DNA of 64,000 bases from an uncultured Pseudomonadales bacterium (GTDB lineage: Bacteria > Pseudomonadota > Gammaproteobacteria > Pseudomonadales > Azotimanducaceae), in contig OY282447.1 of the NCBI GenBank assembly GCA_958296165.1, positions 992,001 through 1,056,000 on the forward strand. The letters are read 5' to 3'. Both the position numbers and the translations under genes were made by a program. The notes below the pieces were generated by a model that was not told the DNA's origin, searched no databases, and worked only from the letters and a program-made list of their open reading frames with translations. Shown here in pieces: positions 2-29,657 of this stretch (the stretch's first letter is position 1; every line of letters begins with the position of its first letter).

Positions 2-2194
<2,193 letters not shown>

Positions 2195-2208
2195 ACACGG
2201 AGGTTCAC

Positions 2209-2865
2209 ATGCAAAGCACTGTTTCCGAAGCCCATCCCGACGCCCATCGAAACTCTACGCGCCTTAGCGGCTGGCGATGTCTCGCGCTGCTCGCCTTGGC
2301 GAGCCTGGCCGCCGCCTGCGCCGGTTCGCCGCCATCCAATCCAGACAACCTGTGCGCCATCTTCAAGGAAAACCCCAAGTGGTATCGCGCCGCCAAGAAG
2401 GCCGAACGCCGCTGGCGCATTTCCGCTCCCGTGATGATGGCCGTGATGCACAAGGAATCGAGCTACCAAGCCAAGGCCAAGCCGCCGCGCACCAAGCTGC
2501 TCAAGGTGATTCCGTGGAAACGGGAGTCGTCCGCCTACGGCTTTGCGCAGGCCACCAAGGCCGCGTGGAAGGACTACGTCGGCGACACCCGCAACAGCTT
2601 CGCAGACCGCGACGATTTCGCGGACGCGGTGGATTTCGTGGGTTGGTATCTCGACAGCGCCCATCGCAGGGCCGGCATCTCCCGCAGCGACGCGCGCAGC
2701 CTCTACATTTCCTACTATGCCGGCATCGGCGGCTACCAGCGCGGCACGTGGAGGAACAACGCCTGGCTGAAGAACGCCGCCGGGCGCGTGAGCGCGCGCA
2801 GCAGCCGCTACGCTGGCCAACTCGCCAATTGCAAGCTCAAGCGCCGCTGGTACTGGTTTGGCTGA
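2209..2865 (+). CDS. SLT-family lytic transglycosylase lipoprotein
   Basis: Predicted murein-cleaving lipoprotein of 218 residues. The start chosen is ATG 2209, which has an ACGGAGG ribosome site just upstream; the frame is open far upstream but only as an antisense-like extension inside ligA. A hydrophobic segment (residues 22-36) ends in the lipobox LAAAC, with C37 as the lipidated residue. The body has the SLT signature: a catalytic glutamate in HKESSY (E83), then SSAYGFAQAT, and the SLYISYYAGIGGY motif near residue 170. It likely sits on the inner leaflet of the outer membrane and cleaves glycan strands. It follows ligA by 14 bases. No specific Mlt class could be assigned. Confidence 0.85.
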   Translation: MQSTVSEAHPDAHRNSTRLSGWRCLALLALASLAAACAGSPPSNPDNLCAIFKENPKWYRAAKKAERRWRISAPVMMAVMHKESSYQAKAKPPRTKLLKVIPWKRESSAYGFAQATKAAWKDYVGDTRNSFADRDDFADAVDFVGWYLDSAHRRAGISRSDARSLYISYYAGIGGYQRGTWRNNAWLKNAAGRVSARSSRYAGQLANCKLKRRWYWFG

Positions 2866-2920
2866 TCCGGTCGACGGTTTGCGGTAGGGTGCGCCAACTA
2901 TGCAGTAGCAACCCGAGAGC

Positions 2921-5032
2921 ATGGCTGAACCGGCCGAAACCAACACGACGCCGCTAACGAGCGAGATCAAGGCCGAGATCCAAGATGCCTATCGCGCTTG
3001 GCTGGCCGGGCGTGGCTTCAAGGCGCGTTGGGGGCAGCGGCAGATGATCGCCGACATCGCCCGTACGCTGACGAGGCCCGACAACCGGCTTAGCGTCGTG
3101 GAAGCGGGCACCGGCACCGGCAAGACCGTCGCCTATTTGCTCGCCGTCATTCCGATCGCCAAGGCGTTGGACAAGCGGGTGGTGATTTCCACCGCCACCG
3201 TGGCGCTGCAAGAACAGGTGGTGCTGCGCGACCTGCCGGACCTGCAGCATCACACGCAACTCGACTTCACGTTCACGTTGGCCAAGGGGCGGGCCCGCTA
3301 CGTTTGCTTGAAGCGCTTGGAAGACCGCATCGCCTTCAACGCCGATCTCGAAGGCCAGCTTTTCGAGCCGCCAGACGCCGCAGATCTAACGATCTATCGT
3401 CGCCTTCAATCCGCCTTCGGCGATGGATCCTGGGATGGCGAACTCGACAGCTGGGCCGAAGGCGTGGAGCGCGGCGTGTGGATGCCGGTCACCAACGACC
3501 GCACTGGCTGCGCCGCCAGTCGATGCAGCTACTACCACCAATGCCCGTTCTTTCGCGCCAGGCGGCAGAGCGCCGAAGTGGATGTGGTGGTAGCCAATCA
3601 CGACCTCGTATTGGCCGACACGAGCTTGGGCGGTGGCGTGGTGCTGCCACCTCCGGACGAGACCATCTTCGTGCTGGACGAAGCCCACCACTTGCCTGAA
3701 AAGACCCGCGACCACTTCACCGCCAGCGTGCGACTGCGCGCCTCAAAGGAATGGCTGGCGCAGGTGAGTTCCTGTTTGGACACGATGGCGCGGCGCCTTG
3801 GTCAGCCACGCGAGGTGGCCCGCGCCATCAACAGGCTAAGCGGCGAGGCCGGCGATCTTGGGCAGTTGCTCGCCAACATGGAGCTGCTGGCGCGCGACCT
3901 GCCCTTTCCCGCGCAGATGACTGCTCGGCGCGACCAACGCAGCCAAGTACACCGCTTCGCCCTTGGCGAAGTACCGTCGCCCATTGCCGATTTGGCGGCG
4001 CCCTTGCACACGGCGTTCGGCGCCGCGGCCGCCATCTTGAACGAACTGCTAGAGGCGCTCGAACAGGTGATCGAAGGCGGCCTCGAATGGGACAACGCGG
4101 AGCAAGCGGACGGATGGCTGCCGATCGTCGGCCAACTCGCCCGCCGCGCCGACGCCGCCGCGGCACTGTTCGGCGACTACGCCGCCACTAGCGCCGAGGG
4201 CGAGGCGGCGCGCTGGGTGACGCGGCTTGTGTACGAATCGTTCGACGAGTTCGAACTCACCAGCGCTCCGCTCGACCCCGGCCGCATCCTGAACGAGACG
4301 CTGTGGGAAAACAGCTATGCGGCGGTGGCGACATCGGCCACGCTGTGCGCCCTCGGCGACTTCGAGCGCTTCATGGCGAACGCCGGAATCACGGCCGAAG
4401 CCCGCCAGCTGCGCATCCGCAGCCCCTTCGACTTTCCTCGCATCGCCGTGCTTTCGGTGCCGGCCATGCAATCGGAACCGCGCGAGGGCGAGCAGCACAC
4501 CGAAGAAGTCGCCGCCATGCTTCCGGACCTGCTGGCGTTGGAACCGAGCGCATTGGCGCTGTTCACTTCGTGGCGGCAGTTCAACGCCGTGGTCGAGAGC
4601 CTGCCAGCCGACGTCCGCGCACACTGCCAAGTGCAGGACACGGCTTCCAAGCAGCGCCTGATCAACGAGCATCGGCAGGCCATCGACGCGGGCGAGCCCA
4701 GCTACCTGTTCGGCTTGGCCAGTTTTGCCGAAGGCGTAGACCTGCCCGGCGACTATTGCCGACACGTGATTCTCGCCAAACTGCCGTTCGCCGCGCCAGA
4801 CAATCCGGTGGACGAGGCATTGTCCGAGTGGCTAGAGAGCCAAAACCGCAACGCATTCATGGAGATCTCGCTGCCGGAGGCGTCGCTGCGGCTCGTGCAG
4901 GCGTGCGGCAGGCTGGTTCGCCACGAGACCGACGGCGGCCGCATCACGCTCTTGGATCGTCGCATCGTCACCAAGCGCTACGGCGAGGCCCTGCTCGATT
5001 CGCTGCCGCCGTATCGGCGCGAGATCGGCTGA
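2921..5032 (+). CDS. dinG: DinG-type ATP-dependent DNA helicase with iron-sulfur cluster
   Basis: Superfamily 2 (XPD/DinG-like) 5'-3' helicase of 703 residues, implicated in DNA-damage tolerance and removal of R-loops. Walker A is EAGTGTGKT (61-69) and the DEAH box is DEAHH at 253-257. Four cysteines between motifs Ia and II (C129, C197, C202, C208) have the spacing of the DinG/XPD [4Fe-4S] cluster. C-terminal helicase motifs include the QACGRLVRHETDGG region. The length is close to E. coli DinG. The start at 2921 is 55 bases after the lytic transglycosylase, and the stop is followed six bases later by the next gene. Confidence 0.95.
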   Translation: MAEPAETNTTPLTSEIKAEIQDAYRAWLAGRGFKARWGQRQMIADIARTLTRPDNRLSVVEAGTGTGKTVAYLLAVIPIAKALDKRVVISTATVALQEQVVLRDLPDLQHHTQLDFTFTLAKGRARYVCLKRLEDRIAFNADLEGQLFEPPDAADLTIYRRLQSAFGDGSWDGELDSWAEGVERGVWMPVTNDRTGCAASRCSYYHQCPFFRARRQSAEVDVVVANHDLVLADTSLGGGVVLPPPDETIFVLDEAHHLPEKTRDHFTASVRLRASKEWLAQVSSCLDTMARRLGQPREVARAINRLSGEAGDLGQLLANMELLARDLPFPAQMTARRDQRSQVHRFALGEVPSPIADLAAPLHTAFGAAAAILNELLEALEQVIEGGLEWDNAEQADGWLPIVGQLARRADAAAALFGDYAATSAEGEAARWVTRLVYESFDEFELTSAPLDPGRILNETLWENSYAAVATSATLCALGDFERFMANAGITAEARQLRIRSPFDFPRIAVLSVPAMQSEPREGEQHTEEVAAMLPDLLALEPSALALFTSWRQFNAVVESLPADVRAHCQVQDTASKQRLINEHRQAIDAGEPSYLFGLASFAEGVDLPGDYCRHVILAKLPFAAPDNPVDEALSEWLESQNRNAFMEISLPEASLRLVQACGRLVRHETDGGRITLLDRRIVTKRYGEALLDSLPPYRREIG

Positions 5033-5037
5033 GCCCC

Positions 5038-5892
5038 GTGCGCATCGCGCAGCTGGCGGGCGTCGTGCCCAGCGCTCTTGTGCGCGACTGCCACCAGCGC
5101 CTCGATGCCGATGCGCCGGACGACTACCGCCAGCTAGCGGCATTGCTGGTGGATGCTTGGCAGCGACGAGGAATCTCGACCGCGGGCATAGGGGGCGGCC
5201 AAGGCGCCGGCAAATCCACCCTCGGCCAGCTCATCGTGGCGGCCGGCACGGCGCGCGGAGTGCGCATCGCCATGCTCGGCATCGACGACTTCTACTTAAC
5301 CAAGGCCGAGCGCCAACGCCTTGCCGAGCAAGTCCACCCGCTCTTGGCCACGCGCGGCCCGCCCGGCACCCACGCCATTGGCCTGGCCGGCCAAGCGCTC
5401 GCTGCGTTGCGGCGCCCAGGCGCGGTGACCGTGCCTCGCTTCGACAAGGGCATCGACGACCGCGCCGGCGCGGCGACGCTGCGCGGGCCGGCAGACATCG
5501 TGGTGCTGGAAGGCTGGTGCGTGGGCGCCGCAGCCGGTTCGGCCGCGGAGCTCGCGGCACCGATCAACGCGCTGGAACGCGACGAAGACGACGCCGGCCG
5601 TTGGCGGCACTACGTCAACGCAGCGTTGCAGGGCGAATACGCCGCCCTGTTCGAGCGCCTCGACACCTTGGTGTTTCTGCAAGTGCCAGACCTCGACGCG
5701 GTGCGGCGCTGGCGGCTCGAGCAGGAGCGCGAGAGGCCGCCGGCGCTGCGCATGTCGGCCGAGGACGTACACATCTTCGTGGCGCACTACGAGCGCGTTA
5801 CCAAGCGGATGCTGGCGCAGCTGCCAGATGCGGCGGATGTGGTGGTTCGGCTCGATCACCAGCACCGCGTGGCCGGATTGCGCCTGCGCTAG
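5038..5892 (+). CDS. P-loop kinase of the D-glycerate 3-kinase (YggC/GLYK) family
   Basis: Predicted small-molecule kinase of 284 residues. GTG 5038 is chosen because it starts six bases after dinG; the frame runs on upstream only inside dinG. The Walker A is GGGQGAGKST near residue 50, followed by a DDFYLT motif (a kinase Walker-B-like/substrate motif), PRFDKG, and a VLEGWCVG segment, all in the order seen in D-glycerate 3-kinases and related uridine/pantothenate kinase-like P-loop proteins. The probable reaction is phosphorylation of D-glycerate to 3-phosphoglycerate, but the substrate cannot be read from sequence. Coupling to dinG looks like simple operon packing. Confidence 0.8.
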   Translation: MRIAQLAGVVPSALVRDCHQRLDADAPDDYRQLAALLVDAWQRRGISTAGIGGGQGAGKSTLGQLIVAAGTARGVRIAMLGIDDFYLTKAERQRLAEQVHPLLATRGPPGTHAIGLAGQALAALRRPGAVTVPRFDKGIDDRAGAATLRGPADIVVLEGWCVGAAAGSAAELAAPINALERDEDDAGRWRHYVNAALQGEYAALFERLDTLVFLQVPDLDAVRRWRLEQERERPPALRMSAEDVHIFVAHYERVTKRMLAQLPDAADVVVRLDHQHRVAGLRLR

Positions 5893-5978
5893 CGCTGAAG
5901 GTCGCGCATCCGTTCAGGTGCGATTCAGCAATGCCGTTGCACACTTCCCGCCAACAGCAACCCATTGGAGATGTCGTC

Positions 5979-6491
5979 ATGTCGAAAAGCACCGTCCTTG
6001 CCCTCGCTCTGGCCTTGACGCCAACCGCGTTCGCCGACGTGCAATACGCCGAAGCGGAAGTGGTGGACGTAGAACCCATCGTCGAGCGCATCGAGTACGT
6101 GGTGCCGAAGGAGCAGTGCTGGTTCGAGACCCGCGCCTACCGCAGCCACCGGGCTGGCCGCAGCGCCACCACGCCCCTGGTCGGAGCGCTGATCGGCGGC
6201 GCCATCGGCAACGCAGTCGGCCACGGCAAGCGCAACAAGCAAGTGGGCGCCGTCATCGGTGCAGTGCTCGGCGGCAGCATCGCCCACGACATCAGCAGCC
6301 GCGAAGCGCATGCGACGCCCGTGCGCCGAGTGCGCCAAGAGGTCTGCGAGGTGGTGGACAAGAAAACCTTCCGCGAGCGCGTCACCGGCTATCTGGTGAC
6401 CTACCGTTACGGCGGCGAGACCCACCGAGCCCGCATGGCGCGCGAACCCGGCGAGACCATCCGCGTACGCATCAGAGTCTCGCCCGCGTAG
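5979..6491 (+). CDS. Glycine-zipper (17 kDa antigen-like) outer membrane protein
   Basis: Exported protein of 170 residues. ATG 5979 is preceded by GGAG and gives a clean signal peptide ending TPTAFA after about 19 residues. The centre (roughly residues 68-105) carries the glycine zipper GALIGGAIGNAVGHGKRNKQ and VGAVIGAVLGGSIAHDI, the hallmark of the 2TM glycine-zipper / rickettsial 17 kDa surface antigen family. Two cysteines flank it (KEQCWFE and QEVCEVV). The C-terminal part (VTGYLVTYRYGGETHRARM) matches the small beta domain common in this family. Members are envelope proteins of poorly defined function. There is no lipobox, so it is periplasmic or membrane-inserted. Confidence 0.8.
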   Translation: MSKSTVLALALALTPTAFADVQYAEAEVVDVEPIVERIEYVVPKEQCWFETRAYRSHRAGRSATTPLVGALIGGAIGNAVGHGKRNKQVGAVIGAVLGGSIAHDISSREAHATPVRRVRQEVCEVVDKKTFRERVTGYLVTYRYGGETHRARMAREPGETIRVRIRVSPA

Positions 6492-6569
6492 GCGCTAGCG
6501 ACGCGAGCGATCCTGTGAATCCGGTAGCAGTCGATACCGAGGAGGCCGTCCGTTAGAACGAGCAACAGT

Positions 6570-6599
6570 TGACATTCAGCCTAGCGCCGGCCTAGTGTG
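6570..6599 (+). promoter_or_regulatory. Candidate sigma-70 promoter for the small paralogue pair
   Basis: A perfect -35 hexamer TTGACA at 6570-6575 is followed after 18 bases by TAGTGT at 6594-6599. A start near 6606 would give a leader of about 35 bases before the GTG at 6640. It is placed to drive both small paralogous genes. Prediction by eye only. Confidence 0.45.
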
Positions 6600-6639
6600 C
6601 TCCAACACTCCGCTACGGGTTCGACCCTTTGAGGATGAC

Positions 6640-6927
6640 GTGAAGATAACGAGAATCGCGCCGTCGAACGAGGCTGGTTTCGAGGTCCTGGCGCAAAACG
6701 ACTGGCCGGAGATCTTCGCAGGAGAGAACACGATTGCCATCCTGTTTGATGCTGGATACCGCATCGTCATGTCGCCCGCCGATGCGATGGGCCTCGCACA
6801 GATGGCAAGATTGGCATCGACGTACCCGGAGTCGAGGTTGGCGCCGAGGGACTCGGAGTCGCCATCGGAGACCGACGCGGGTGGGAGATTGCCTGCCCAC
6901 AAGCGGCAGCCCCCCACCTCGGCTTGA
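6640..6927 (+). CDS. Small protein of unknown family, first of two tandem paralogues
   Basis: I do not recognise this family. GTG 6640 (95 residues) is preferred over the ATG at 6595, because the protein from GTG aligns from its first residue with the downstream neighbour, and GAGG lies just before it. Shared features are KITRIAPSNEAGFEVLAQND against KLTRIAEQANETGFDLLAEND, then TIAILFDAGYRIVMSPADAMG against TVAIYLDNGYRIVLSPTDALG. The tail beyond about residue 65 is not shared and is rich in Pro, Ser and Glu. There is no signal peptide or membrane segment. The pair was most likely formed by local duplication. Confidence 0.6.
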   Translation: MKITRIAPSNEAGFEVLAQNDWPEIFAGENTIAILFDAGYRIVMSPADAMGLAQMARLASTYPESRLAPRDSESPSETDAGGRLPAHKRQPPTSA

Positions 6928-6969
6928 GGCTCTCGCGGCGGGCTCGCAAGGAACGAAGGAGATAGCGCT

Positions 6970-7245
6970 TTGAAACTAACGCGAATAGCCGAGCAGGCGA
7001 ACGAGACTGGTTTCGACCTGCTGGCGGAAAACGACCAGCCCGAAATCACCTTCGAGAAACGCACCGTAGCCATCTATCTGGACAACGGCTACCGCATCGT
7101 GTTGTCGCCGACCGACGCCCTCGGCATCGCGTCGATGGCGGTGATGGCTTTGCTTCCCGCCGAGCAAAGGCCGCAGGAGACGGACTCGGGCCTGAGGATG
7201 AGGATGCTGTGGCCGCTCAAGTTCCGGCCGAACGAGTCCGATTGA
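6970..7245 (+). CDS. Small protein of unknown family, second of two tandem paralogues
   Basis: A 91-residue product from TTG 6970, backed by an AAGGAG ribosome site 10 bases upstream. Residues 1-58 align with the preceding gene without large gaps, sharing a short predicted alpha/beta core with the landmarks GFDLLAEND, TVAIYLDNGYRIVLSP and a following hydrophobic helix IASMAVMALL. Conservation of both copies with different tails argues that they are real genes rather than chance frames. The 42-base gap and lack of a terminator suggest cotranscription. Function is unknown; a small DNA- or protein-binding role is possible but nothing in the sequence shows it. Confidence 0.6.
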   Translation: MKLTRIAEQANETGFDLLAENDQPEITFEKRTVAIYLDNGYRIVLSPTDALGIASMAVMALLPAEQRPQETDSGLRMRMLWPLKFRPNESD

Positions 7246-7747
7246 GCACCGGCAGGCCCGGCCACGATATTCCCACATGCCCGCCAATTCGTGCTATGTT
7301 GCGCACGCATTCCAGCGAGCGCCGCAGCATCCATATGCAGTCCCGCAAGCAGGTTTGCCCTCCCAGTCACGAGTTATTCAACGATTAACGCCTCGAAGCG
7401 CGTCATCCATCGTCAGACACGCCGCATCGGCCAAGAGGTCAGATCCGGCAGAGCCGTGCTCGCCAACCCAATACGCGACATCCGGGACGCGCGAAAGCAA
7501 GTTCCGGCCCACCAAGTAAGGGAACCACACGCCCAGGGATTGGGTCGAGCTCAAATCGAAGGCCCCCAGCCATGTCACCGCCGGGCCACCTACCTGCCAG
7601 AGACCACCGCCAGCGCTGTTGTGACACGCGAGAGAGCGGATGAGCTTACCGGCACGCTAGGTGCTCCATCGCCGCCAATTTGGTTTGCGGCCAGCGGCAC
7701 GACGAATCACGCGCGTTTCGAGCCGTTGCCACCACGGAAACACCAAC
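7246..7747 (+). promoter_or_regulatory. Gene-free 0.5 kb region upstream of rne (probable long 5' leader)
   Basis: About 500 bases with no convincing gene on either strand. The region near 7299-7315 has a TATGTT element that could be a -10, with a weak TTCCCA 19 bases upstream, which would give a leader of more than 400 bases. In E. coli, rne has a long 5' untranslated region through which RNase E represses its own synthesis; a similar role here is inference from position and length. I could not fold the RNA by eye with confidence. Confidence 0.35.
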
Positions 7748-10363
7748 ATGAAACGCATGCTCGTCAACGCGACTCAGCCCGAAGAAGTTCGAGTCGCCTT
7801 GGTCGACGGTCAGAAGCTCTATGACCTCGACATCGAAAACCACACCCTTGAGCAGAAGAAAGGCAACGTCTACAAGGCCAAGGTCAATCGCGTAGAGCCC
7901 AGCCTAGAGGCCGCCTTCGTCGACTTCGGCGCCGACCGACACGGCTTCCTGCCACTCAGGGAAGTCGCCCGCTCCTACTACAAGAACACCGGCCAAAACG
8001 GCCAGACCAACATACGGGATGTTCTGCACGAGGGCCAAGAGCTGATCGTGCAAGTGGAGAAGGACGAGCGCGGCACCAAGGGCGCGGCGCTCACGACCTT
8101 CTTGAGCGTCGCCGCGCGCTATCTGGTGCTGATGCCCAACAATCCGCGCGCCGGCGGCATCTCCAAGCGCATCGACGGCGACAACCGCGAGTCGCTGCGC
8201 GACGCGCTCGCCAGCCTCGACATCCCGGACGGCATGGGCGTGATCGTCCGTACCGCCGGGGTGGACCGCGATGCCGCCGATTTGCAGTGGGACTTGGACT
8301 ACCTGCTGCAATTGCACGAAGCGATCCAAAAGGCCGCGGCGCAGTTGCCGGCGCCAGCGCTGCTCTACCAGGAAAACAACGTCATCGTGCGTGCCATCCG
8401 CGATTGTCTGCGGCGCGACATCGGCGAGGTCCTGATCGACGGCAAGGAGGCGTATCAACAGGCGCGAGAGTTCATCGAACCCGTGATGTCGCACTACAAG
8501 GATCGCATCAAGTTCTACGACGAACCCATCCCGCTATTCAGCCGCTACCAGATCGAGAGCCAGATCGAAACCGCCTTTCAGCGCGAGGTGAAGTTGCAGT
8601 CCGGCGGCAGCATCGTGATCGACCCGACCGAAGCGCTGGTGTCCATCGACATCAACTCCGCTCGCGCCACCAAAGGCGCGGACATCGAGGAAACCGCGCT
8701 CAACATCAACCTGGAAGCCGCCGATGAAGTCGCGCGCCAACTGCGCTTGCGCGATGTCGGCGGGCTGGTCGTCATCGACTTCATCGACATGGTGGCGCCG
8801 AAGAACCAGCGCGCTGTGGAGACCAGAATGCGCGAGGCCCTGCAAACCGATCGGGCGCGCGTGCAAGTGGGCAAGATTTCCCGCTTCGGGCTGATGGAGA
8901 TGTCCCGCCAGCGGCTGCGCCCGTCGCTCCAGGAGCTCACTTCCGAAGTGTGTCCGCGCTGTTTGGGCCAAGGGCGCATTCGCGACCTCAAGTCCTTGGC
9001 GTTGTCGATCCTGCGCGTGGTGGAGGAGGAGTCTCTCAAGCAGCGCAGTTCCATGGTGCAGGCGCGCGTGCCGCTCAACGTCGGCGCCTACTTGCTCAAC
9101 GAAAAGCGCCGCGAGGTAGCCGACATCGAACAGCGTACTTCCACGCACTTGGTGATCGTGCCGAGCCCCGACTTGGAAACGCCCCACTTCGAGATCAAGC
9201 GCATCCGCGACGACACTCTGGAAACCGAAGGCAACGTACCGAGCTATGAGCTGATGGAAACGCCGGTTACGGAAGTGCCAGCGCAACGCGAAGAGCGGCC
9301 AGCGAAGCCGCCGCAGCAAGCCGCGGTGAAGGCTGCTCCACCGCCAGCACCGCGCCAAGATGCCGCGCCGAGCACGTCGCCAACGGCACCGCCCGCAATA
9401 GCCAGCAAGGGCTTTTTTGGCACTATCCGAGCAATCTTCCGCAACCTGTTCGGCGACGGCCAAGAAGGTGAAGCCGCGCCCTCACCCGGCCAGCAAGCGC
9501 AGAGCGCCGACCGTGCCCCGCGTCAAGGCGGACGCTCCAGCCAGGCCGAACGCTCCGGCGACCGCCGTCGGCAAGGCCGCGGCCAGGGGCGTCGCGGCGG
9601 GCGCGACGACGATCGCGGCACGCGCCGCCGCCCGCGCCAGCGCGAAGGCGGGCCACAAGCGCAGGACGGTGATCAGGCCGGCGAAGGCAATCAGAGCGGC
9701 AATCGCTCGCGCCGCCGCGACCGGCGCCCGCGAAGCGGCCCAGAGCAGCACGCTGGAAGCCAGAGGCAAGAGCAATCGCAGGGCGAACGCGCTCGAACGG
9801 CAACGTCGCGGCACAGCACCAGCGAACGCCGTGAAGACAGCTCGGCGCGCGAGGACACCGCAACCGAGCAAGGCAAGGGCCAAGCCGCGGCAACCGCCAG
9901 CGCCGCCGACTTGAGCGCCAGCCGCCGCAAGCCGCGGCGCGATCGTGCGTCGGTCCCAAGCAACGGCGGCGAGCGCAATCGTCCGCCCAAGCCGCGACCT
10001 GCAACCACAGAAGAAGTGGACGTACACGCCACGGCAGCGCCGCAAGCCACGCCATCGGCGCCGGAGTCGGCAGCGCCGCCGCGCCGCCGCGAGCGGGCCA
10101 GCAACGACCCGCGCGCTCGCTCCAGCCAACCCGATCAGGCCAAAACGGAGGCTGTGCCGCCCGCGCCGGCGGTTGTCGAAGCTCCGCCGGTGGACAAGCC
10201 CAAAACCAAGAGCCACGATGCGGAAGCGGCCAACACTGCCGCGGTGGAGACCACCGCTGCCGAGCCGGCACCGTCGGCCAGCCACGCGGAAGACGAGAAC
10301 CCCGTCGCCACGCGCGGCCGAGCCAGCAACGATCCCCGCGAACTACGGCGGGCCGGGAGTTAG
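7748..10363 (+). CDS. rne: Ribonuclease E
   Basis: Essential endoribonuclease that starts mRNA decay and processes stable RNA; the C-terminal half scaffolds the degradosome. ATG 7748 (871 residues) starts [13 protein letters not shown], the standard N terminus. An S1 RNA-binding domain lies within about residues 35-120. The magnesium-binding aspartates are D301 in [12 protein letters not shown] and D344 in VVIDFIDM. The zinc link CPRCLGQG (C402, C405) forms the tetramer interface. From about residue 510 the protein becomes disordered and rich in Arg, Gln, Pro and Ala, with basic tracts suited to RNA binding. Two copies of RASNDPR occur, one near residue 785 and one at the extreme C terminus. 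murB converges on it. Confidence 0.97.
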
Positions 10364-10396
10364 CCGCTAAGCCAAGAGCCGGCGGCTGGGTTTTGG
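10361..10396. terminator. Weak hairpin between convergent rne and murB
   Basis: AGCCGC and GCGGCT can pair around a loop of about 14 bases, followed by GGGTTTTGG. The stem is short and the T tract is interrupted, so it is only a possible bidirectional terminator in the 40-base gap between the convergent rne and murB stops. Confidence 0.3.
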
Positions 10397-10403
10397 TCTG
10401 GGA

Positions 10404-11402
10404 TTAGTCCACGCCCTTGACCGCCGGCTCCAACTCCAGCTGTACGCCGTACTTGGCTGCTACGTCGTCGCGAACGCATTGCGCCATCGCCAAGACTTCG
10501 CGCCCGCTCGCGCCACCGTGATTGACGAGCACTAGCGGCTGGCGCGGCCAAACTTGCACGGCACCTTGCCGTGCGCCCTTCCAGCCGGCGCGGTCGACGA
10601 GCCGTGCCGCTGGGACCTTGAAGCGATCGCCATCCACATAGGCATCCACGTCCACCAGCCCGCGCAGTGCATCGAGCTGCGCTGCGGTGAGGCGCGGATT
10701 CTTGAAGAAGCTGCCGACGTTGCCGATTCGCCGCGGGTCCGGCAGTTTGCGTCGCCGCACGCGCGCCACCGCCTCGGCCACGCTGCCATGGCCGGCAGCC
10801 GCGCCCATCGAGCCGAGTTCGCGGCGGATGTCTGGATAGCTGGCGTTGGCACATAGCACGCCGAGCACCAGGCTCACATACACGATCACATAGCGCTGTG
10901 CCCCATCGTCTTTGAAGCGGCTGTCGCGGTAGCGGAACGCACACTCGTTCGCGCTGAGCGTCGCCAAGCGGTGGCGCTCGCGGTCTACTACCGTTACTGA
11001 TTCCAGCACCTGTGCGAGCTCGCGCCCGTAGGCGCCGATGTTCTGCACTGGCGCTGCGCCCACCGAGCCGGGAATCAACGTGAGGTTTTCCAAGCCGCCG
11101 ATGCCGCGCCCAAGGCTCGCACGCACAGCCTCTTGCCATGTTTCGCCAGCGCCGGCCACCAGCCGCCAGCGCCGTTCGTCGAGCCGCTCGAAGACGAGGC
11201 CGCGAATGCGCGGCTGTACCACCAAGCCGGGCAACCGCGCGCGCAAAACCACATTCGAGCCTTGGCCGATCACCGTCGTCGGGTCGCCACGAGCGTCGGC
11301 TTTCGCCAATAGATCACCGAGTTCGTTTGCACTGCCGGCAGTACGGAAGTCGTCCGCGCGGCAAGACACCCGCAAGGTGTTGGGCACGGCCGGCGACTTC
11401 AC
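10404..11402 (-). CDS. murB: UDP-N-acetylenolpyruvoylglucosamine reductase MurB (type I)
   Basis: FAD enzyme that reduces UDP-GlcNAc-enolpyruvate to UDP-MurNAc in peptidoglycan synthesis. GTG at 11402 overlaps the stop of the upstream AlkB-like gene as GTGA and gives 332 residues, the usual size. The FAD-binding segment has VIGQGSNVVL and LTLIPGSVGAAPVQNIGAYG. Active-site landmarks are FRYRDSRFK (Arg of the type I class) and GNVGSFFKNP (the serine proton donor). The C-terminal motif normally written LEPEVR, which carries the second catalytic glutamate, reads LEPAVKGVD here and the protein then stops, so that Glu appears to be Ala. In Pseudomonas murB also neighbours rne. Confidence 0.93.
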   Translation of the reverse strand: MKSPAVPNTLRVSCRADDFRTAGSANELGDLLAKADARGDPTTVIGQGSNVVLRARLPGLVVQPRIRGLVFERLDERRWRLVAGAGETWQEAVRASLGRGIGGLENLTLIPGSVGAAPVQNIGAYGRELAQVLESVTVVDRERHRLATLSANECAFRYRDSRFKDDGAQRYVIVYVSLVLGVLCANASYPDIRRELGSMGAAAGHGSVAEAVARVRRRKLPDPRRIGNVGSFFKNPRLTAAQLDALRGLVDVDAYVDGDRFKVPAARLVDRAGWKGARQGAVQVWPRQPLVLVNHGGASGREVLAMAQCVRDDVAAKYGVQLELEPAVKGVD

Positions 11403-12010
11403 GAGTTGGCCAGCCGTCGAAAGGTAAAGCTGATGCGCTCGCCAACCGGCGCCCTCGTGCGCACCAGGCAGTGTTTGTAGTCGCGCTGGCTGCGGCCCCA
11501 CATCACCAGCAGCGAGCCGTGACCCAACGTTTGCGCGGTGCTTGCCCCGCCGCGCCTAGGCCGCAGCCGAAACACCCGCTCGGCGCCAACGCTCACCGCC
11601 GCTATGACGGGCTCATCGCCGAGGTCTCGTTCGTCGTCCGCATGCCAGCCCAGCATGTCGTCGCCGTCGCGATAGCGGTTCACCAGCACATAGTCGAACC
11701 GCCACCGCAGTGCCGCGCCTACCGCTAAGGCGAGCGCACGGATCTCGCCGTACCAGGGCGTAGCGCGACGAACCACGCCGCTGTAGCGATATGCCGTGCC
11801 AGCCTCGCCGTACCACGCCACGAGTCGCGGCGCCGTCACTTCGCGGCCGAACATCGTCAAGCGTTCGCAGCGCCAATCCACATCCGCGAGGGCTCGCGCC
11901 AGCAAGGCGTCGGCCGGTTGGCGATCCAGGAAACCGGGCAGGTAGCACACTTGCGGAATGCCCACCGCGTGCGCGGCGGCAAGCAGTCGTGGCGGCGGCG
12001 CATAGCTCAT
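11399..12010 (-). CDS. AlkB-like Fe(II)/2-oxoglutarate dioxygenase
   Basis: Predicted nucleic-acid demethylase of the AlkB superfamily, 203 residues. The iron ligands are visible as HxD in GWHADDE and the distal His in DYKHCLVRT; the arginines that bind 2-oxoglutarate lie in ERISFTFRR at the end. The N-terminal nucleotide-recognition part includes LTMFGREVTAPRLVAWYG and YRYSG, which resembles the ALKBH2/3-like and bacterial AlkB group that reverses 1-methyladenine and 3-methylcytosine damage by oxidation. It is translationally coupled to murB through a 4-base overlap, although no functional link is expected. Substrate class (DNA or RNA) cannot be read from sequence. Confidence 0.87.
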   Translation of the reverse strand: MSYAPPPRLLAAAHAVGIPQVCYLPGFLDRQPADALLARALADVDWRCERLTMFGREVTAPRLVAWYGEAGTAYRYSGVVRRATPWYGEIRALALAVGAALRWRFDYVLVNRYRDGDDMLGWHADDERDLGDEPVIAAVSVGAERVFRLRPRRGGASTAQTLGHGSLLVMWGRSQRDYKHCLVRTRAPVGERISFTFRRLANS

Positions 12011-19007: not shown

Positions 19008-21020
19008 CTAGCGTCGCCACCAGCGCGGCGGACGAATTGGCCGGTTGAGAAACTCCTCGGTGTATTTGCGATTCAGCGTGATTTGCCCGGACGCGCTGCC
19101 GCCATCGTCTAGCAGCCAATCCGGGATGTCGGCTCGCATTCGGGTGGACTCCATGGTCGCAACGGAGATCACGATGCGCTCGCCCGACGTCGTCCAGCAA
19201 CCTTCGGGCGGACGACGGGCCGCGTCGTGTCTATCCCCATGCAGGATGTTGTTCAGCAGCAAGCGCGGCCGCTCGAACGCACGCTGTTGGTACTCGTCAA
19301 GCGTCATCGGCGCGCACCAGTCCGGCAGCGGCGTCGTGGCCGGCAAGTGCTCCTCGAACAGCGCGCACAGGGCCTGGGAAGAAAGGTGCAGCGCGTCCAC
19401 GTCGTGATCTTTCTCGAGCGCCTCGTCCACCAGCGCCATCGCGCGTTGCAGGAAGCACCGGTACAACGCGGTGGACAGACGCTCGCGAATGGCCGCCACC
19501 GAACGCTGCAAGGACTTTCTGGCCGCGGTGTTGTCGCCCGGCAGCGAGGTGCGCGTGTAGATCATCAGGCAGCGCTTGATGATCTCCGCCTTGAAGCTCC
19601 GTGCATCGGCATTCATGGAGAGCGCAAAGCACGGATATTCGTGATACGGAATGGTCTCGTCCTTGATGATCTCGTCCGCATAGCGGCTGAAACGATCTCG
19701 CGTGACGTCGTCGAACACCACGGGGAAGCGTTTGTATGTCTGCTGCAGGCCACGCAGCTTGCCCGGCGTGAAGTCCTGCGTGTCGATGATGCGTGGGTAT
19801 TGGAACATCGACGTCATGAGCATATCCACCAAACTGGTCTTGCCGCAGTTGCTGGCGCCGAACAGCACGGCAAACAACGGCTGATCGAAACTAAACGCAT
19901 TGTTGCGCAGCGCCGCGTTGCGCAGATCGCACATCAATGGAGATATGTAGAACCAGCACAGGAACGTGAAGTAATCCCGCCGCAAACGCGCGACGTCGCC
20001 CACGAAGCCGTTTTCGTAATTGCGGAAGAACTCCAGCCAACACGCGACATCTTCTTGAACGCTCGCCGATTCCACATCGAGCGACATCGGTTCTCCCGAC
20101 AGGACGAAGCCCTTGCCGGTACGCGATAGATATGTTGCCGGCGCCGCATCGGCGTGGCGCGAGTGAACGATGCGCGAGATCTGCTTGACGATGCGCGGCG
20201 TCAAACGCAACCGCGCGCCTCGATCTGGCTTCATGTCTGCCATGCCCCGACGAAGCGCGGGCTTGATGGCTTCCACCTTCGCCACCACTTCGGCTACGGA
20301 ATAGCCCTGCTCCGCTTCGACTTCGTTCGGCACATACAGCGTCGTGCCGTCTGGGTCTCGTTCCGCCTCGATCATGGCCGGCACCTGCTCCACCCATATC
20401 TTCTCGGCGGCGGGCTTCGCCTCTTCGCGCAGCGGCAGGCGGCTGGTGGATGCATCGCGGACTGCTTCGTACTGCGCCGCGTAATGCTGCCAAGCCGTCT
20501 CATCATCGTCGAAGACGATCAGCGTCTCCGCTTGGCGTCCGGAGAAGGCTCGTTCAGACAAATTGGCCGAACCGACGATGACGCGCTTCCTGTTCGGGCC
20601 TTCCAAGAGATATATCTTGGCGTGCGCGATGACGTCCTTGACGACGAAGAAGCGCACTTCTTCCCGCGCCACGCGGTCGTGGATCGCCTTGCGGCGTTCC
20701 GGCGCCACCCCTTGCAACGCCACGATGCTGTCTCGCAGCCCATCCGCGACGACGTCTTGAAAGGCGAGGATTTCTGCCGCATCCCGGGAGAGGATGCCGC
20801 CATGCCCGAAAACGCACTCGAAGGCGTCGAAATCATGTTCCACGAGCAGCCCGGCGATCATCGGAATACTCGACGAGTAGGTGAGCGCCCGCATGGTAGT
20901 GAAGCCTGCAAAGTACGTTTGCCCAAACGACGCCACGGACTCCGCACGAGCGTGGACGACGTTCAGCTCGCCGCGCCGCGTTATGGATTCGGCATCGTCG
21001 AACAGCAATTGGCTTGGCAT
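19008..21020 (-). CDS. PLD-superfamily nuclease fused to a P-loop ATPase/helicase-like domain
   Basis: A 670-residue protein I cannot place in a named family. Residues about 1-195 form a phospholipase D-like nuclease unit with one HKD-type motif: H133 and K135 in AHAKIYLLEG, then GSANLSERAFSG (S151, N153). Residues 200-300 are a charged linker region. Residues 320-520 contain a P-loop ATPase core: Walker A FGASNCGKTS (387-396), Walker B RFPVVFDDV (431-439), a sensor-like FALSMNADARS (465-475) and a basic IIKRCLMIYTR, an order similar to superfamily 3 helicases. The C-terminal 130 residues are unassigned. PLD nuclease plus NTPase architectures are common in anti-phage and anti-plasmid systems; that role is inference. 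It stands alone, 147 bases downstream of another ATPase gene on the same strand. Confidence 0.7.
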   Translation of the reverse strand: MPSQLLFDDAESITRRGELNVVHARAESVASFGQTYFAGFTTMRALTYSSSIPMIAGLLVEHDFDAFECVFGHGGILSRDAAEILAFQDVVADGLRDSIVALQGVAPERRKAIHDRVAREEVRFFVVKDVIAHAKIYLLEGPNRKRVIVGSANLSERAFSGRQAETLIVFDDDETAWQHYAAQYEAVRDASTSRLPLREEAKPAAEKIWVEQVPAMIEAERDPDGTTLYVPNEVEAEQGYSVAEVVAKVEAIKPALRRGMADMKPDRGARLRLTPRIVKQISRIVHSRHADAAPATYLSRTGKGFVLSGEPMSLDVESASVQEDVACWLEFFRNYENGFVGDVARLRRDYFTFLCWFYISPLMCDLRNAALRNNAFSFDQPLFAVLFGASNCGKTSLVDMLMTSMFQYPRIIDTQDFTPGKLRGLQQTYKRFPVVFDDVTRDRFSRYADEIIKDETIPYHEYPCFALSMNADARSFKAEIIKRCLMIYTRTSLPGDNTAARKSLQRSVAAIRERLSTALYRCFLQRAMALVDEALEKDHDVDALHLSSQALCALFEEHLPATTPLPDWCAPMTLDEYQQRAFERPRLLLNNILHGDRHDAARRPPEGCWTTSGERIVISVATMESTRMRADIPDWLLDDGGSASGQITLNRKYTEEFLNRPIRPPRWWRR

Positions 21021-21167
21021 TGGTTTGGCCGCTCTCGGCTGTGGCTAGGGAGGATACCGTTCGGGCCGCCGGCCCACACTAGCGGGAGTTTGCGATAGCT
21101 TCTTGGCGCGTCGATCCACTGTGGGCGCTGCGATCACCACCGCCCTCCATATAGATGGCAACGCCTC

Positions 21168-22337
21168 TCATGGATTGGCGCCTAGCTCGCCGATGCGCCA
21201 CAGGTCGCCGAGTCGGTAGTCGTCCAGCCAACTCGCGAGCCGGTCCGGCTCCAAGCGCGTCAGCACGGTTGCAGCGCCTGGGCGTTCACAGGCGACCACC
21301 GCATCTACGTGATTGGTGAGCGCCGAGATTAAGGCGTCGGAGTGTGTGGTGACGATTAGCTGCGTGTTCGCGGACGCTTCCACAAGCAGTTCGCCCAGCA
21401 AGGTAAGCACGTCTGGGTGCAGCCCCAGTTCGGGTTCCTCTATGCACAGCAACGGTGGTGGATTGGTGCTAAGCAGAGCGGCGATCAGGGCGATGAAGCG
21501 GAGGGTTCCATCGGAGAGGCGCGTTGCGGGGATGGGAGCGCTGAATCCTGATTCGTGGAGATAGAACTGCACCGTGCCGCCCAAAACGCGCGTTGAGAGG
21601 CGCTCGAAGCGGGGAAAGAACCGTCTCATCAGTTCGTTGAGCCTAACAGCACCGTCGTTGTGTTCGATCTCGTTCAGCACGAGCGCGAGATTGCTGTTGT
21701 CGGGCAGGAGTCTGTCTCCGGGGAGGTCCGCCCGTTGCGGCTGCCGCAGGGCGACATAGCGCCCGAAGGACCACTCGCGGAATGTTTGGAACGAGCCTAG
21801 CGTGTTGCCGACCCAAGTGACTTCAGGGTACAGGTCCGGATCTTTGCGCTGCGCCAGAATGGACTGGTCTGGTCGAAGGTCCCCGCGTAGAAGATGACGT
21901 GGCCTATCAGTACCATTGATGACCGGATGGCCCCGTTGAAATCGGTAATAGAAAGGGACGTCCGATCCCTCCCGTCGCGCTGGCACAGGCTCGACGTCCT
22001 CAATGGCCTCGTCGATTACCTGCAGGCGGCTCAGAACCGCCGCCAATTCGATACGGTACCGTAGAGGTCGTCCGGTCGGCCCGCCGTCGAGTACCGCATC
22101 AATCACGGCCGGCCCTTGCGCCGTTCCCTTCCACAGCCAGTCGCCAGGGCCACCGCCATCGCGAATGGCGGCGGCCAAGTCGCGGGGTGTTGACGCCAGA
22201 AGTTCTATCGCCTCGATCAGATTGGACTTTCCAGATCCGTTCGGACCAATCAGAACGTTGAGCCCGCGCAAGTCGAACGGCGCCGAATCCGGTGCGAATG
22301 AGAGTAGGCCGCTTAGGCGCAGGCTACGAATGGTCAC
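21168..22337 (-). CDS. SMC/RecF-like AAA ATPase (AAA_21, COG4637-type)
   Basis: ATPase of 389 residues with an ABC-type head and no long coiled coil. GTG 22337 has AGGAG six bases upstream. Walker A is GPNGSGKSNLIEAIELL near residue 31; the signature region includes LSDGTLRFIAL, Walker B LLCIEEPELGLHP, and the H-loop is VTTHSDALISAL. The N terminus IRSLRLSGLLSF is typical of RecF/OLD-like heads. There is no TOPRIM nuclease domain. Stand-alone proteins of this type are widespread, and many are partners in defence systems; here no nuclease partner is adjacent except the PLD-ATPase gene downstream. It could act with that gene or be an unrelated neighbour. Confidence 0.8.
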   Translation of the reverse strand: MTIRSLRLSGLLSFAPDSAPFDLRGLNVLIGPNGSGKSNLIEAIELLASTPRDLAAAIRDGGGPGDWLWKGTAQGPAVIDAVLDGGPTGRPLRYRIELAAVLSRLQVIDEAIEDVEPVPARREGSDVPFYYRFQRGHPVINGTDRPRHLLRGDLRPDQSILAQRKDPDLYPEVTWVGNTLGSFQTFREWSFGRYVALRQPQRADLPGDRLLPDNSNLALVLNEIEHNDGAVRLNELMRRFFPRFERLSTRVLGGTVQFYLHESGFSAPIPATRLSDGTLRFIALIAALLSTNPPPLLCIEEPELGLHPDVLTLLGELLVEASANTQLIVTTHSDALISALTNHVDAVVACERPGAATVLTRLEPDRLASWLDDYRLGDLWRIGELGANP

Positions 22338-27429: not shown

Positions 27430-27858
27430 TCAAACGGCATCGTCGTCCAAGACACCCAGCGCCCAATCCCGCAGCTCCTTCAACGCGCCCAACTCATCCT
27501 GGATCGCTCGGTAGGAAACGCGGTGGTCAACATTTGCGTACTGATGCAAGAGCACGTTGCGGAACCCGGCCCACCCGCGCAGACGTTCCGCTAGGTTCGC
27601 ATCGATCGCCCCCGCCTCCTCCAGCACGCTGAAGGTGTCGCGATTGCTCTCCGGCGTGCGCAAGCCGCTCTCGGCGATCCAATGGTTGGCGACGTCGATA
27701 GCGGCTTCCGCCACCAAGTGCAGGTACCGCTCGGCAAGGTCGTGGACGGCCGGTTCGGCGAGGAATGCCTCCTCGTTCACCTCACCTAAGCGCTCTGCCC
27801 TCTCCAAGTAGGCGTCCAACGCGCCTAGCCGACGCGAGAATATCTCCTGGTCCACCAT
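27430..27858 (-). CDS. hepT: HepT-like HEPN RNase toxin
   Basis: A 142-residue all-helical HEPN (DUF86) protein. The catalytic RX4HXY motif is intact: R100, H105 and Y107 in FRNVLLHQYANV. In characterised MntA/HepT systems HepT is an RNase (tRNA or mRNA) and the antitoxin MntA AMPylates the tyrosine of this motif. ATG 27858 is the first start consistent with the family N terminus, and lies inside the 3' end of mntA. Gene order (antitoxin then toxin) is the usual one. The pair sits at the head of a minus-strand run that continues into the aminopeptidase and sbcB. Confidence 0.87.
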   Translation of the reverse strand: MVDQEIFSRRLGALDAYLERAERLGEVNEEAFLAEPAVHDLAERYLHLVAEAAIDVANHWIAESGLRTPESNRDTFSVLEEAGAIDANLAERLRGWAGFRNVLLHQYANVDHRVSYRAIQDELGALKELRDWALGVLDDDAV

Positions 27859-28333
27859 CGTTCTCTGCACCTCTCGCTGCACCCCCCGCTTCGCCTGCTT
27901 GCCGGCGCCGCAACCGCGCCAGCCGCGCACGGGTGTGTTCCCTAAGCCGCGGTTCCATATCGTGATACTCGCGAATTGTGCGAATAGCGAATCGCACCCG
28001 TTCGGCTTTGCTGCGTTGGCGCAACAATACTCCGTCGCGCAAGACGCGGTGGCGTAGCAGCGGCGGTGCCCCGTTCAACAGCACGATGTGCAGCATGTGC
28101 GCAGGCACGTCGCCACCGAGCCGCCCGGCCAAGCGCCGAATCATTCGGTTCACGCCCGCCGCGTCCGCGACCTCGTTGTGTTCCACCAATACGGCGATGT
28201 CGAAGTCGCTGTCTGGCCGATGCGTGCCACGGGCACGACTGCCAAACAGATACGCAAGGCGCACTTCCGGCAACGCCGCGAGTCGTTCGGCCAAGTAGGA
28301 ATGGATCGGATCAGTGAGCGGCGTTGCAGTCAT
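27782..28333 (-). CDS. mntA: MntA-like nucleotidyltransferase antitoxin
   Basis: Minimal nucleotidyltransferase of 183 residues from ATG 28333. The NTase signature GSX10DXD is complete in YLFGSRARGTHRPDSDFD. The partner gene is hepT. Typical MntA proteins end near 140 residues; this one carries an extra Arg/Gly-rich tail of about 45 residues, and the last 77 bases overlap hepT in another frame. The overlap could be a real coupled arrangement or reflect a small indel near the end of mntA that moved the stop codon downstream. Confidence 0.83.
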   Translation of the reverse strand: MTATPLTDPIHSYLAERLAALPEVRLAYLFGSRARGTHRPDSDFDIAVLVEHNEVADAAGVNRMIRRLAGRLGGDVPAHMLHIVLLNGAPPLLRHRVLRDGVLLRQRSKAERVRFAIRTIREYHDMEPRLREHTRARLARLRRRQAGEAGGAARGAENDGGPGDILASARRVGRLLGEGRALR

Positions 28334-28494
28334 ATTGAGTGGCCAACTGCACGAGCTGGAGATCATAGCGCATCGGCGGGGCAGCGCAGCCTGAAGCGCC
28401 GAAAGCGATTGCGCTAGTGCAGCCGTGCATCCATGTACATGTTGAAATACACACGAGGCCAGCTATGGTCCGTGGTCGATCATTGGGCCGGTGT

Positions 28495-29306: not shown

Positions 29307-29558
29307 TCAATCGCTGTCCGGGAAGATGTTTGAAACTCCAATCGCTTCGATGAGACCCTCATCCTCCTTGTCGAAGTCCTCAGACATCCATATCTGCCCC
29401 TCCAAGCCACCTAGTCGCCGCGCTTCCGTGGGCCCTTCGTAGGGCATCAACCGCAACCAAGGCTTGCCTGCTTTGCAGATCACGACCTGCTCTCCCTGCC
29501 AAGCCAATGCCGCCAGACGGGAAAGCTGCGATTTCGCCTCATGCATGTTGACCTTCAT
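29307..29558 (-). CDS. Phd/YefM-family antitoxin, orphan
   Basis: An 83-residue product from ATG 29558. The N-terminal MKVNMHEAKSQLSRLAALAW and VVICKAGKPWLRLMPY segments match the Phd/YefM DNA-binding fold, and RRLGGLEGQIWMSEDFD matches the toxin-binding tail of antitoxins that pair with PIN toxins. No toxin gene follows on the minus strand; the only PIN-like sequence nearby is the short remnant on the other strand. It may be a solitary antitoxin kept as an anti-addiction factor, or part of the local decay. Confidence 0.75.
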   Translation of the reverse strand: MKVNMHEAKSQLSRLAALAWQGEQVVICKAGKPWLRLMPYEGPTEARRLGGLEGQIWMSEDFDKEDEGLIEAIGVSNIFPDSD

Positions 29559-29657
29559 CAAAGCATTCTCCAAATGACCAGGTTTAGCTAAGCCTAGAAC
29601 GCCCATCCGACCCATGCACTAACAAGGGCAGCTACGGCGTCAACGTAATCGCTCCGC

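What the first reader, a model, noticed from the sequence alone, without database searches (positions are those of the whole stretch)
19008..22337. PLD nuclease-P-loop ATPase fusion next to an SMC-like ATPase: candidate defence module
The 670-residue protein carries a one-HKD PLD nuclease domain and a Walker A/B ATPase resembling superfamily 3 helicases, an architecture I do not recognise as a named system. A RecF/SMC-like ATPase gene lies 147 bases upstream on the same strand. The pair is wedged between the conserved exbB operon and an ABC importer, adjacent to toxin-antitoxin and restriction debris. A nuclease governed by an NTPase sensor is a recurring defence design. A one-HKD domain would need to dimerise to be active.
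Basis: partly seen in the sequence, partly recalled or inferred. Interest (0 to 1): 0.8.

Follow-up and report, generated by a model that had tools for sequence, protein, structure and literature searches.

The report
Stand-alone nuclease fused to ring helicase
The window holds a rare, mobile, single-gene protein that joins a DNA-cutting (PLD) domain to a virus-type ring helicase motor and may cut foreign DNA; the ATPase gene beside it is the leftover half of a different two-gene defence candidate, so the two are not a pair.

Summary
A 670-aa PLD nuclease-AAA+ fusion lies at 19008-21020(-), 147 bases from a RecF/SMC-like ATPase gene at 21168-22337(-). The 'module' reading fails. The ATPase is a full-length HEC-01A (PADLOC candidate system; 494 bits). 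In 9 of 9 other loci it is followed by HEC-01B (DUF4276), never by the PLD gene. In the window HEC-01B is reduced to a ~30-codon stub that begins at the ATPase stop (ATGA overlap, 'VAIYMEGGG'); the rest of the 147-base gap is decayed. Conversely, none of 32 fetched loci (31 distinct) with PLD-ATPase homologues holds HEC-01A or B. The PLD-ATPase is therefore a one-gene unit. It is rare, patchy, under purifying selection (dN/dS about 0.15-0.21), transferred between phyla, often broken, and in different sites in three genomes of one genus. Pfam, NCBIfam and PADLOC have no full-length model. Best explanation: a stand-alone ATP-dependent nuclease, probably restricting foreign DNA. Neighbourhoods are mixed: type I restriction or toxin-antitoxin genes in some, housekeeping genes in many. 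Function is untested.

The parts
19008..21020 (-). PLD nuclease-AAA+ (SF3/Cch-like) fusion protein, 670 aa; the stand-alone unit
20421..20972 (-). PLD nuclease domain, about residues 17-200 (NgoAVII-R/NucT/SauUSI type); H133-x-K135 at 20616-20624, GSANL at 20559-20573
   Evidence: PF13091/PF09565; Z 12.3 to 4rct over 151 residues at 3.3 A
19221..20141 (-). AAA+ SF3/SaPI-Rep-type domain, about residues 294-600; Walker A 19836-19859, Walker B 19707-19724, sensor N470 19611-19613, R483 19572-19574
   Evidence: invariants; Z 13.6 to 5dgk and 13.3 to 8tch over 294-664/670
19026..19208 (-). C-terminal mixed alpha/beta domain, about residues 605-665, included in the Cch/SaPI-Rep alignments
   Evidence: secondary structure and pLDDT 74-90; assignment as a winged helix is inference
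21168..22337 (-). HEC-01A ATPase (AAA_21), intact ORF, orphaned
   Evidence: PDLC04177 493.7 bits over residues 1-388; PF13304 E 1.7e-43
21079..21171 (-). Stub of HEC-01B (DUF4276) beginning at an ATGA overlap with the HEC-01A stop: MRGVAIYMEGGGD..., stop after 30 codons
   Evidence: partner identity
21021..21078 (-). Decayed spacer; a frame-shifted stretch (KLPLVWAGGPNG) faintly resembles the next DUF4276 segment
   Evidence: weak (score 29)

Best explanation
Two unrelated accessory units lie side by side. (1) HEC-01A is the surviving half of a HEC-01 (AAA_21 + DUF4276) locus whose second gene was lost. (2) The PLD-AAA+ gene is a self-contained, horizontally mobile, ATP-dependent nuclease. 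Proposed mechanism: the SF3/Cch-type AAA+ domains assemble into a ring on DNA, ATP hydrolysis drives loading, translocation or unwinding, and the N-terminal single-HKD domains pair across subunits into active PLD dimers that cut the DNA, so that replicating phage or plasmid DNA is restricted. Shown here: domain composition, invariant catalytic and ATPase residues, predicted folds, purifying selection, solitary context, horizontal transfer. Inferred: ring assembly, dimerisation, DNA as substrate, defence role and how self is spared.
For: HEC-01B follows HEC-01A in 9/9 other loci (two truncated) and the PLD gene in 0/9; HEC-01A and B are absent from all 32 PLD-ATPase loci; the window stub aligns with G001 DNA continuously across the stop/start junction; HEC-01B identity. 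PLD and AAA+ fold matches; invariants; dN/dS 0.15-0.21; different insertion sites in G000, G003, G013; a Myxococcota copy groups with G003 at 100/100, and two divergent copies occur in G893. A type I restriction locus (HsdM, HsdS), AlbA_2, Fic and SIR2 surround the Latescibacterota copies; ParE or other toxin-antitoxin genes are next to L139, L015 and L018.
Against: Many homologues sit among housekeeping genes (L005, L008, L019, L138, L142, L143, L149), so the defence reading rests on domain logic, patchiness and partial linkage, not consistent islands. No control neighbourhoods were counted. No phage or viral-contig copies were found, which is neutral. Ring assembly and DNA cleavage are untested. 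Residues 193-294 are modelled with low confidence.
Confidence: 0.6

Rival explanations
1. The PLD-AAA+ protein is a replication or transfer helicase-nuclease of mobile elements (a PLD analogue of HUH-SF3 Rep proteins, or of SaPI Rep/Cch), stranded on chromosomes.
For: The best fold matches of the ATPase half are replication initiator helicases of SaPI and SCCmec; some copies lie on plasmids, beside ParA/ParB in Arcobacter.
Against: No copy in 50,697 phage records or the IMG/VR scan (the scan only samples conserved peptides); plasmid carriers have their own Rep genes; most chromosomal copies have no replicon, integrase or relaxase neighbours. L006 has a TrwC relaxase fragment nearby.
Confidence: 0.15
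2. It is a housekeeping DNA-repair or RNA-processing nuclease, not defence.
For: Purifying selection; housekeeping neighbourhoods in several genomes; one locus lies between RecQ and PIF1-type helicase genes (L147).
Against: Found in only 4 of 147 relatives and no other full-length hit in about 770 class and phylum genomes; insertion site differs within the genus; several copies are truncated or interrupted (L141, L144, L150, L014).
Confidence: 0.15
3. The PLD-AAA+ protein and the ATPase now act together in this strain, even though the pair arose by chance deletion.
For: Same strand, 147 bases apart, both ORFs intact; HEC-01A dN/dS against G001 about 0.17.
Against: No other locus shows the pair; the HEC-01B stub lies between them; the dN/dS is averaged over the whole divergence and would not show recent orphanhood.
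Confidence: 0.07

Closest known systems
R.NgoAVII / NgoFVII family PLD restriction endonucleases (4rct; PF09565), with R.BfiI (2c1l) and SauUSI (7clg)
   Same: PLD nuclease domain: PF09565 reached in the window protein and E up to 0.1 in all 12 members scanned; Z 12.3-13.1 to NgoAVII-R and SauUSI; nuclease coupled to an ATP motor in SauUSI.
   Different: The motor here is SF3/Cch-like AAA+, not an SF2 helicase; no B3 or SRA recognition domain was detected by Pfam.
SCCmec Cch helicase (5dgk) and SaPIBov1 Rep helicase (8tch)
   Same: AAA+ domain and C-terminal part align over residues 294-664/670, Z 13.3-13.6.
   Different: Those are replication helicases of mobile islands and carry no PLD domain; about 10-11% identity; rmsd of the whole alignment 8.5-9.8 A.
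HEC-01 (PADLOC candidate: HEC-01A ATPase + HEC-01B DUF4276)
   Same: The upstream gene is a full-length HEC-01A.
   Different: HEC-01B is a 30-codon stub; the PLD gene is not part of HEC-01.
Azaca ZacB (PADLOC PDLC03829)
   Same: Local match to residues 133-194 of the PLD domain, E 5.7e-7.
   Different: No match elsewhere; not the same family.

Membership tests
   0 of 32 PLD-ATPase loci hold HEC-01A; 0 of 9 HEC-01A loci hold the PLD-ATPase
HEC-01 | HEC-01A ATPase | tested here: met
   PDLC04177 493.7 bits, full length
HEC-01 | Intact adjacent HEC-01B (DUF4276) | tested here: not met
   Only a ~30-codon 5' stub; intact copies in seven of nine other loci
NgoFVII/NgoAVII-R-like PLD nucleases | PLD domain of this type | tested here: met
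   PF09565 29.3 bits against a cut-off of 23.8; Z 12.3 to 4rct
NgoFVII/NgoAVII-R-like PLD nucleases | C-terminal B3-like DNA recognition domain | tested here: inconclusive
   No Pfam B3 hit; residues 193-294 poorly modelled
SauUSI-type ATP-dependent type IV enzymes | SF2 helicase and SRA domain | tested here: not met
   Motor matches SF3/Cch AAA+; no SF2 or SRA Pfam hit
SF3 / D5-like / Cch helicase class | Walker A, Walker B, sensor-1 Asn, arginine finger candidate, AAA+ fold | tested here: met
   G388, G393, K394, D437, N470, R483 invariant; fold matches; which residue is the finger is inference
SF3 / D5-like / Cch helicase class | Helicase activity as a ring | not testable with these tools
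   needs protein
Any PADLOC-named defence system (PLD-ATPase) | Full-length profile match | tested here: not met
   Only domain-level matches
Anti-phage defence system | Protection against phage | not testable with these tools
   experiment

The most novel reading that the evidence does not exclude
A previously unnamed single-gene defence family in which a PLD endonuclease is driven by a replication-initiator-type (SF3/Cch) ring helicase, assembling on replicating invader DNA and cutting it in cis: a repurposed mobile-element replication motor.
Probability: 0.4. Interest if true: 0.7.

Novelty: new variant of a known kind. Interest (0 to 1): 0.48.

Why it matters
PLD nucleases in restriction are known with SF2 motors; a fusion to an SF3/Cch replication-type ring would be a new pairing and a one-gene, easily tested candidate. 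The case also shows how an adjacent pair with the look of a module can be a deletion scar: the missing partner's first codons are still readable.

Tried and rejected
Whole-protein PDB sequence searches gave no significant hit for the PLD-ATPase. A first model from 7 sequences was poor (mean pLDDT 63) and was replaced by an 18-sequence model (72.6). Viral contigs and phages gave nothing. Class- and phylum-wide genome searches gave only domain-level hits apart from the window's own copy. Literature searches found no paper naming HEC-01 or DUF4276 in this sense and none on a PLD-SF3 defence protein; the library lacks most subscription papers. Matches of the ATPase half to GajA and mad8 profiles are P-loop-level only. 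The frame-shifted continuation of the HEC-01B remnant scores no better than chance and is not relied on.

Full report
Observation. The two ORFs are real and placed as described: 670 aa at 19008-21020(-) and 389 aa at 21168-22337(-), 147 bases apart. The window is G000:C1:992001-1056000 of a 5.07-Mb single-contig genome.

The ATPase. It is a full-length member of PADLOC's HEC-01A (PDLC04177, 493.7 bits) and of AAA_21. Relatives were found in 12 of 147 related genomes, the window's own included, and nine further loci were fetched. In all nine the gene after it is DUF4276/HEC-01B (profile confirmation), full length in seven and truncated in L087 and L090. In the window the HEC-01A stop overlaps an ATG (ATGA), from which a reading frame gives MRGVAIYMEGGGDRSAHSGSTRQEAIANSR and a stop. 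The first part is the DUF4276 start: eight of the nine residues of VAIYMEGGG are identical to G001. The score of 47 exceeds the 99th percentile of shuffles (41) and of random window segments (44), with rare higher values (55 and 62), and it falls at exactly the expected place and frame; the DNA aligns with G001 straight through the junction. The intergenic gap is therefore the scar of a lost HEC-01B.

The PLD-ATPase is not its partner. In 32 loci with PLD-ATPase homologues (31 distinct, since L152 repeats L007; chromosomes and plasmids, with up to about 8 kb on each side where the contig allows) neither HEC-01A nor HEC-01B occurs, and none of nine HEC-01A loci holds the PLD-ATPase. Genomes G003 and G013 carry both genes far apart.

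What the PLD-ATPase is. Pfam gives PLDc_2 and RE_NgoFVII above their cut-offs and a sub-threshold RNA_helicase (SF3) match; all 12 members of the first alignment match both PLD models at E up to 0.1. Across 18 homologues with pairwise identities down to about 15-18%, the residues H133, K135, R146, G150, S151, N153, L154, D171, G388, G393, K394, P433, D437, N470 and R483 never vary; E165 is nearly invariant. The H-x-K...N...E spacing recalls R.BfiI (from memory). An AlphaFold model from these 18 sequences (mean pLDDT 72.6; AAA+ region mostly 75-97) matches, for residues 8-200, SauUSI, NgoAVII-R, NucT, Nuc and BfiI (Z 9.7-13.1) and, for residues 294-664/670, the SCCmec Cch and SaPIBov1 Rep helicases (Z 13.6 and 13.3), then SaPI5 primase-helicase, MCM, D5/E5 and E1. 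A match in fold does not show activity.

Distribution. It is rare: 4 of 147 relatives counting the window, four genome-contig loci and 12 plasmid records; none in phages or in the viral-contig scan, and no other full-length hit in class and phylum samples. It is frequent in one Latescibacterota group (18 of 242 genomes sampled around G887 have some match). The Myxococcota copy L006 groups with G003 of the window's genus at 100/100 and two divergent copies share genome G893, which point to transfer between phyla. Copies are broken in several genomes (L141 interrupted by a stop, L144 and L150 deleted, L014 interrupted by a transposase gene). Intact copies are under purifying selection (dN/dS 0.15-0.21, near saturation for dS).

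Neighbourhoods. In the Latescibacterota group the gene sits in a variable type I restriction locus, next to HsdM or an AlbA_2 protein, with HsdS, Fic, SIR2 and a zeta-toxin-like kinase near. Toxin-antitoxin genes are adjacent in L139 and in Acetobacter and Komagataeibacter plasmids; a methyltransferase and helicases are adjacent in Athalassotoga. Many other copies have only housekeeping neighbours (L005, L008, L019, L138, L142, L143, L149). By hand, roughly a third to two fifths of independent contexts have restriction or toxin-antitoxin genes close by; I did not run a control, so this is suggestive only. In relatives the exbB-exbD-msbA block and the sbcB-osmV-osmF block are each conserved but were not found next to each other in the stretches read, so the site is a variable boundary.

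Conclusion. The module claim is rejected. The PLD-AAA+ fusion is real, unnamed in the libraries searched, solitary and mobile; an ATP-driven nuclease that restricts foreign DNA is the most likely role (about 0.6), a mobile-element replication protein or a repair nuclease the main rivals.

Noticed in passing
L086 (G000:C1:528000-540000), 1302-11597: In the same genome an intact HEC-01A/HEC-01B pair is nested between brxC and pglX of a BREX locus (BrxB, BrxC and PglX confirmed), followed by a 351-aa protein with a PLD-like HxK/GSGN motif that matches no PADLOC model.
   Followed up: partly
L090 (G000:C1:2193000-2205000), 5397-6628: A third HEC-01A in this genome, internally shortened, with HEC-01B cut to about 58 residues: loss of HEC-01B is recurrent.
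   Followed up: partly
window 27430-28366: MNT-type nucleotidyltransferase (weak PADLOC PDC-S09) overlapping a HEPT-like gene; by eye a Phd-type antitoxin at 29307-29615.
   Followed up: partly
L133 and L139 (genome G893): Two PLD-ATPase genes of 38% identity in one genome, from different clades of the tree.
   Followed up: yes
L137 1837-6279; L140 9691-14139: A ~1480-aa protein in the Latescibacterota restriction locus with no Pfam or PADLOC match at the cut-offs used.
   Followed up: no
L014 7965-11023 (Thermus oshimai plasmid): A PLD-ATPase copy split by a transposase-family insertion.
   Followed up: no
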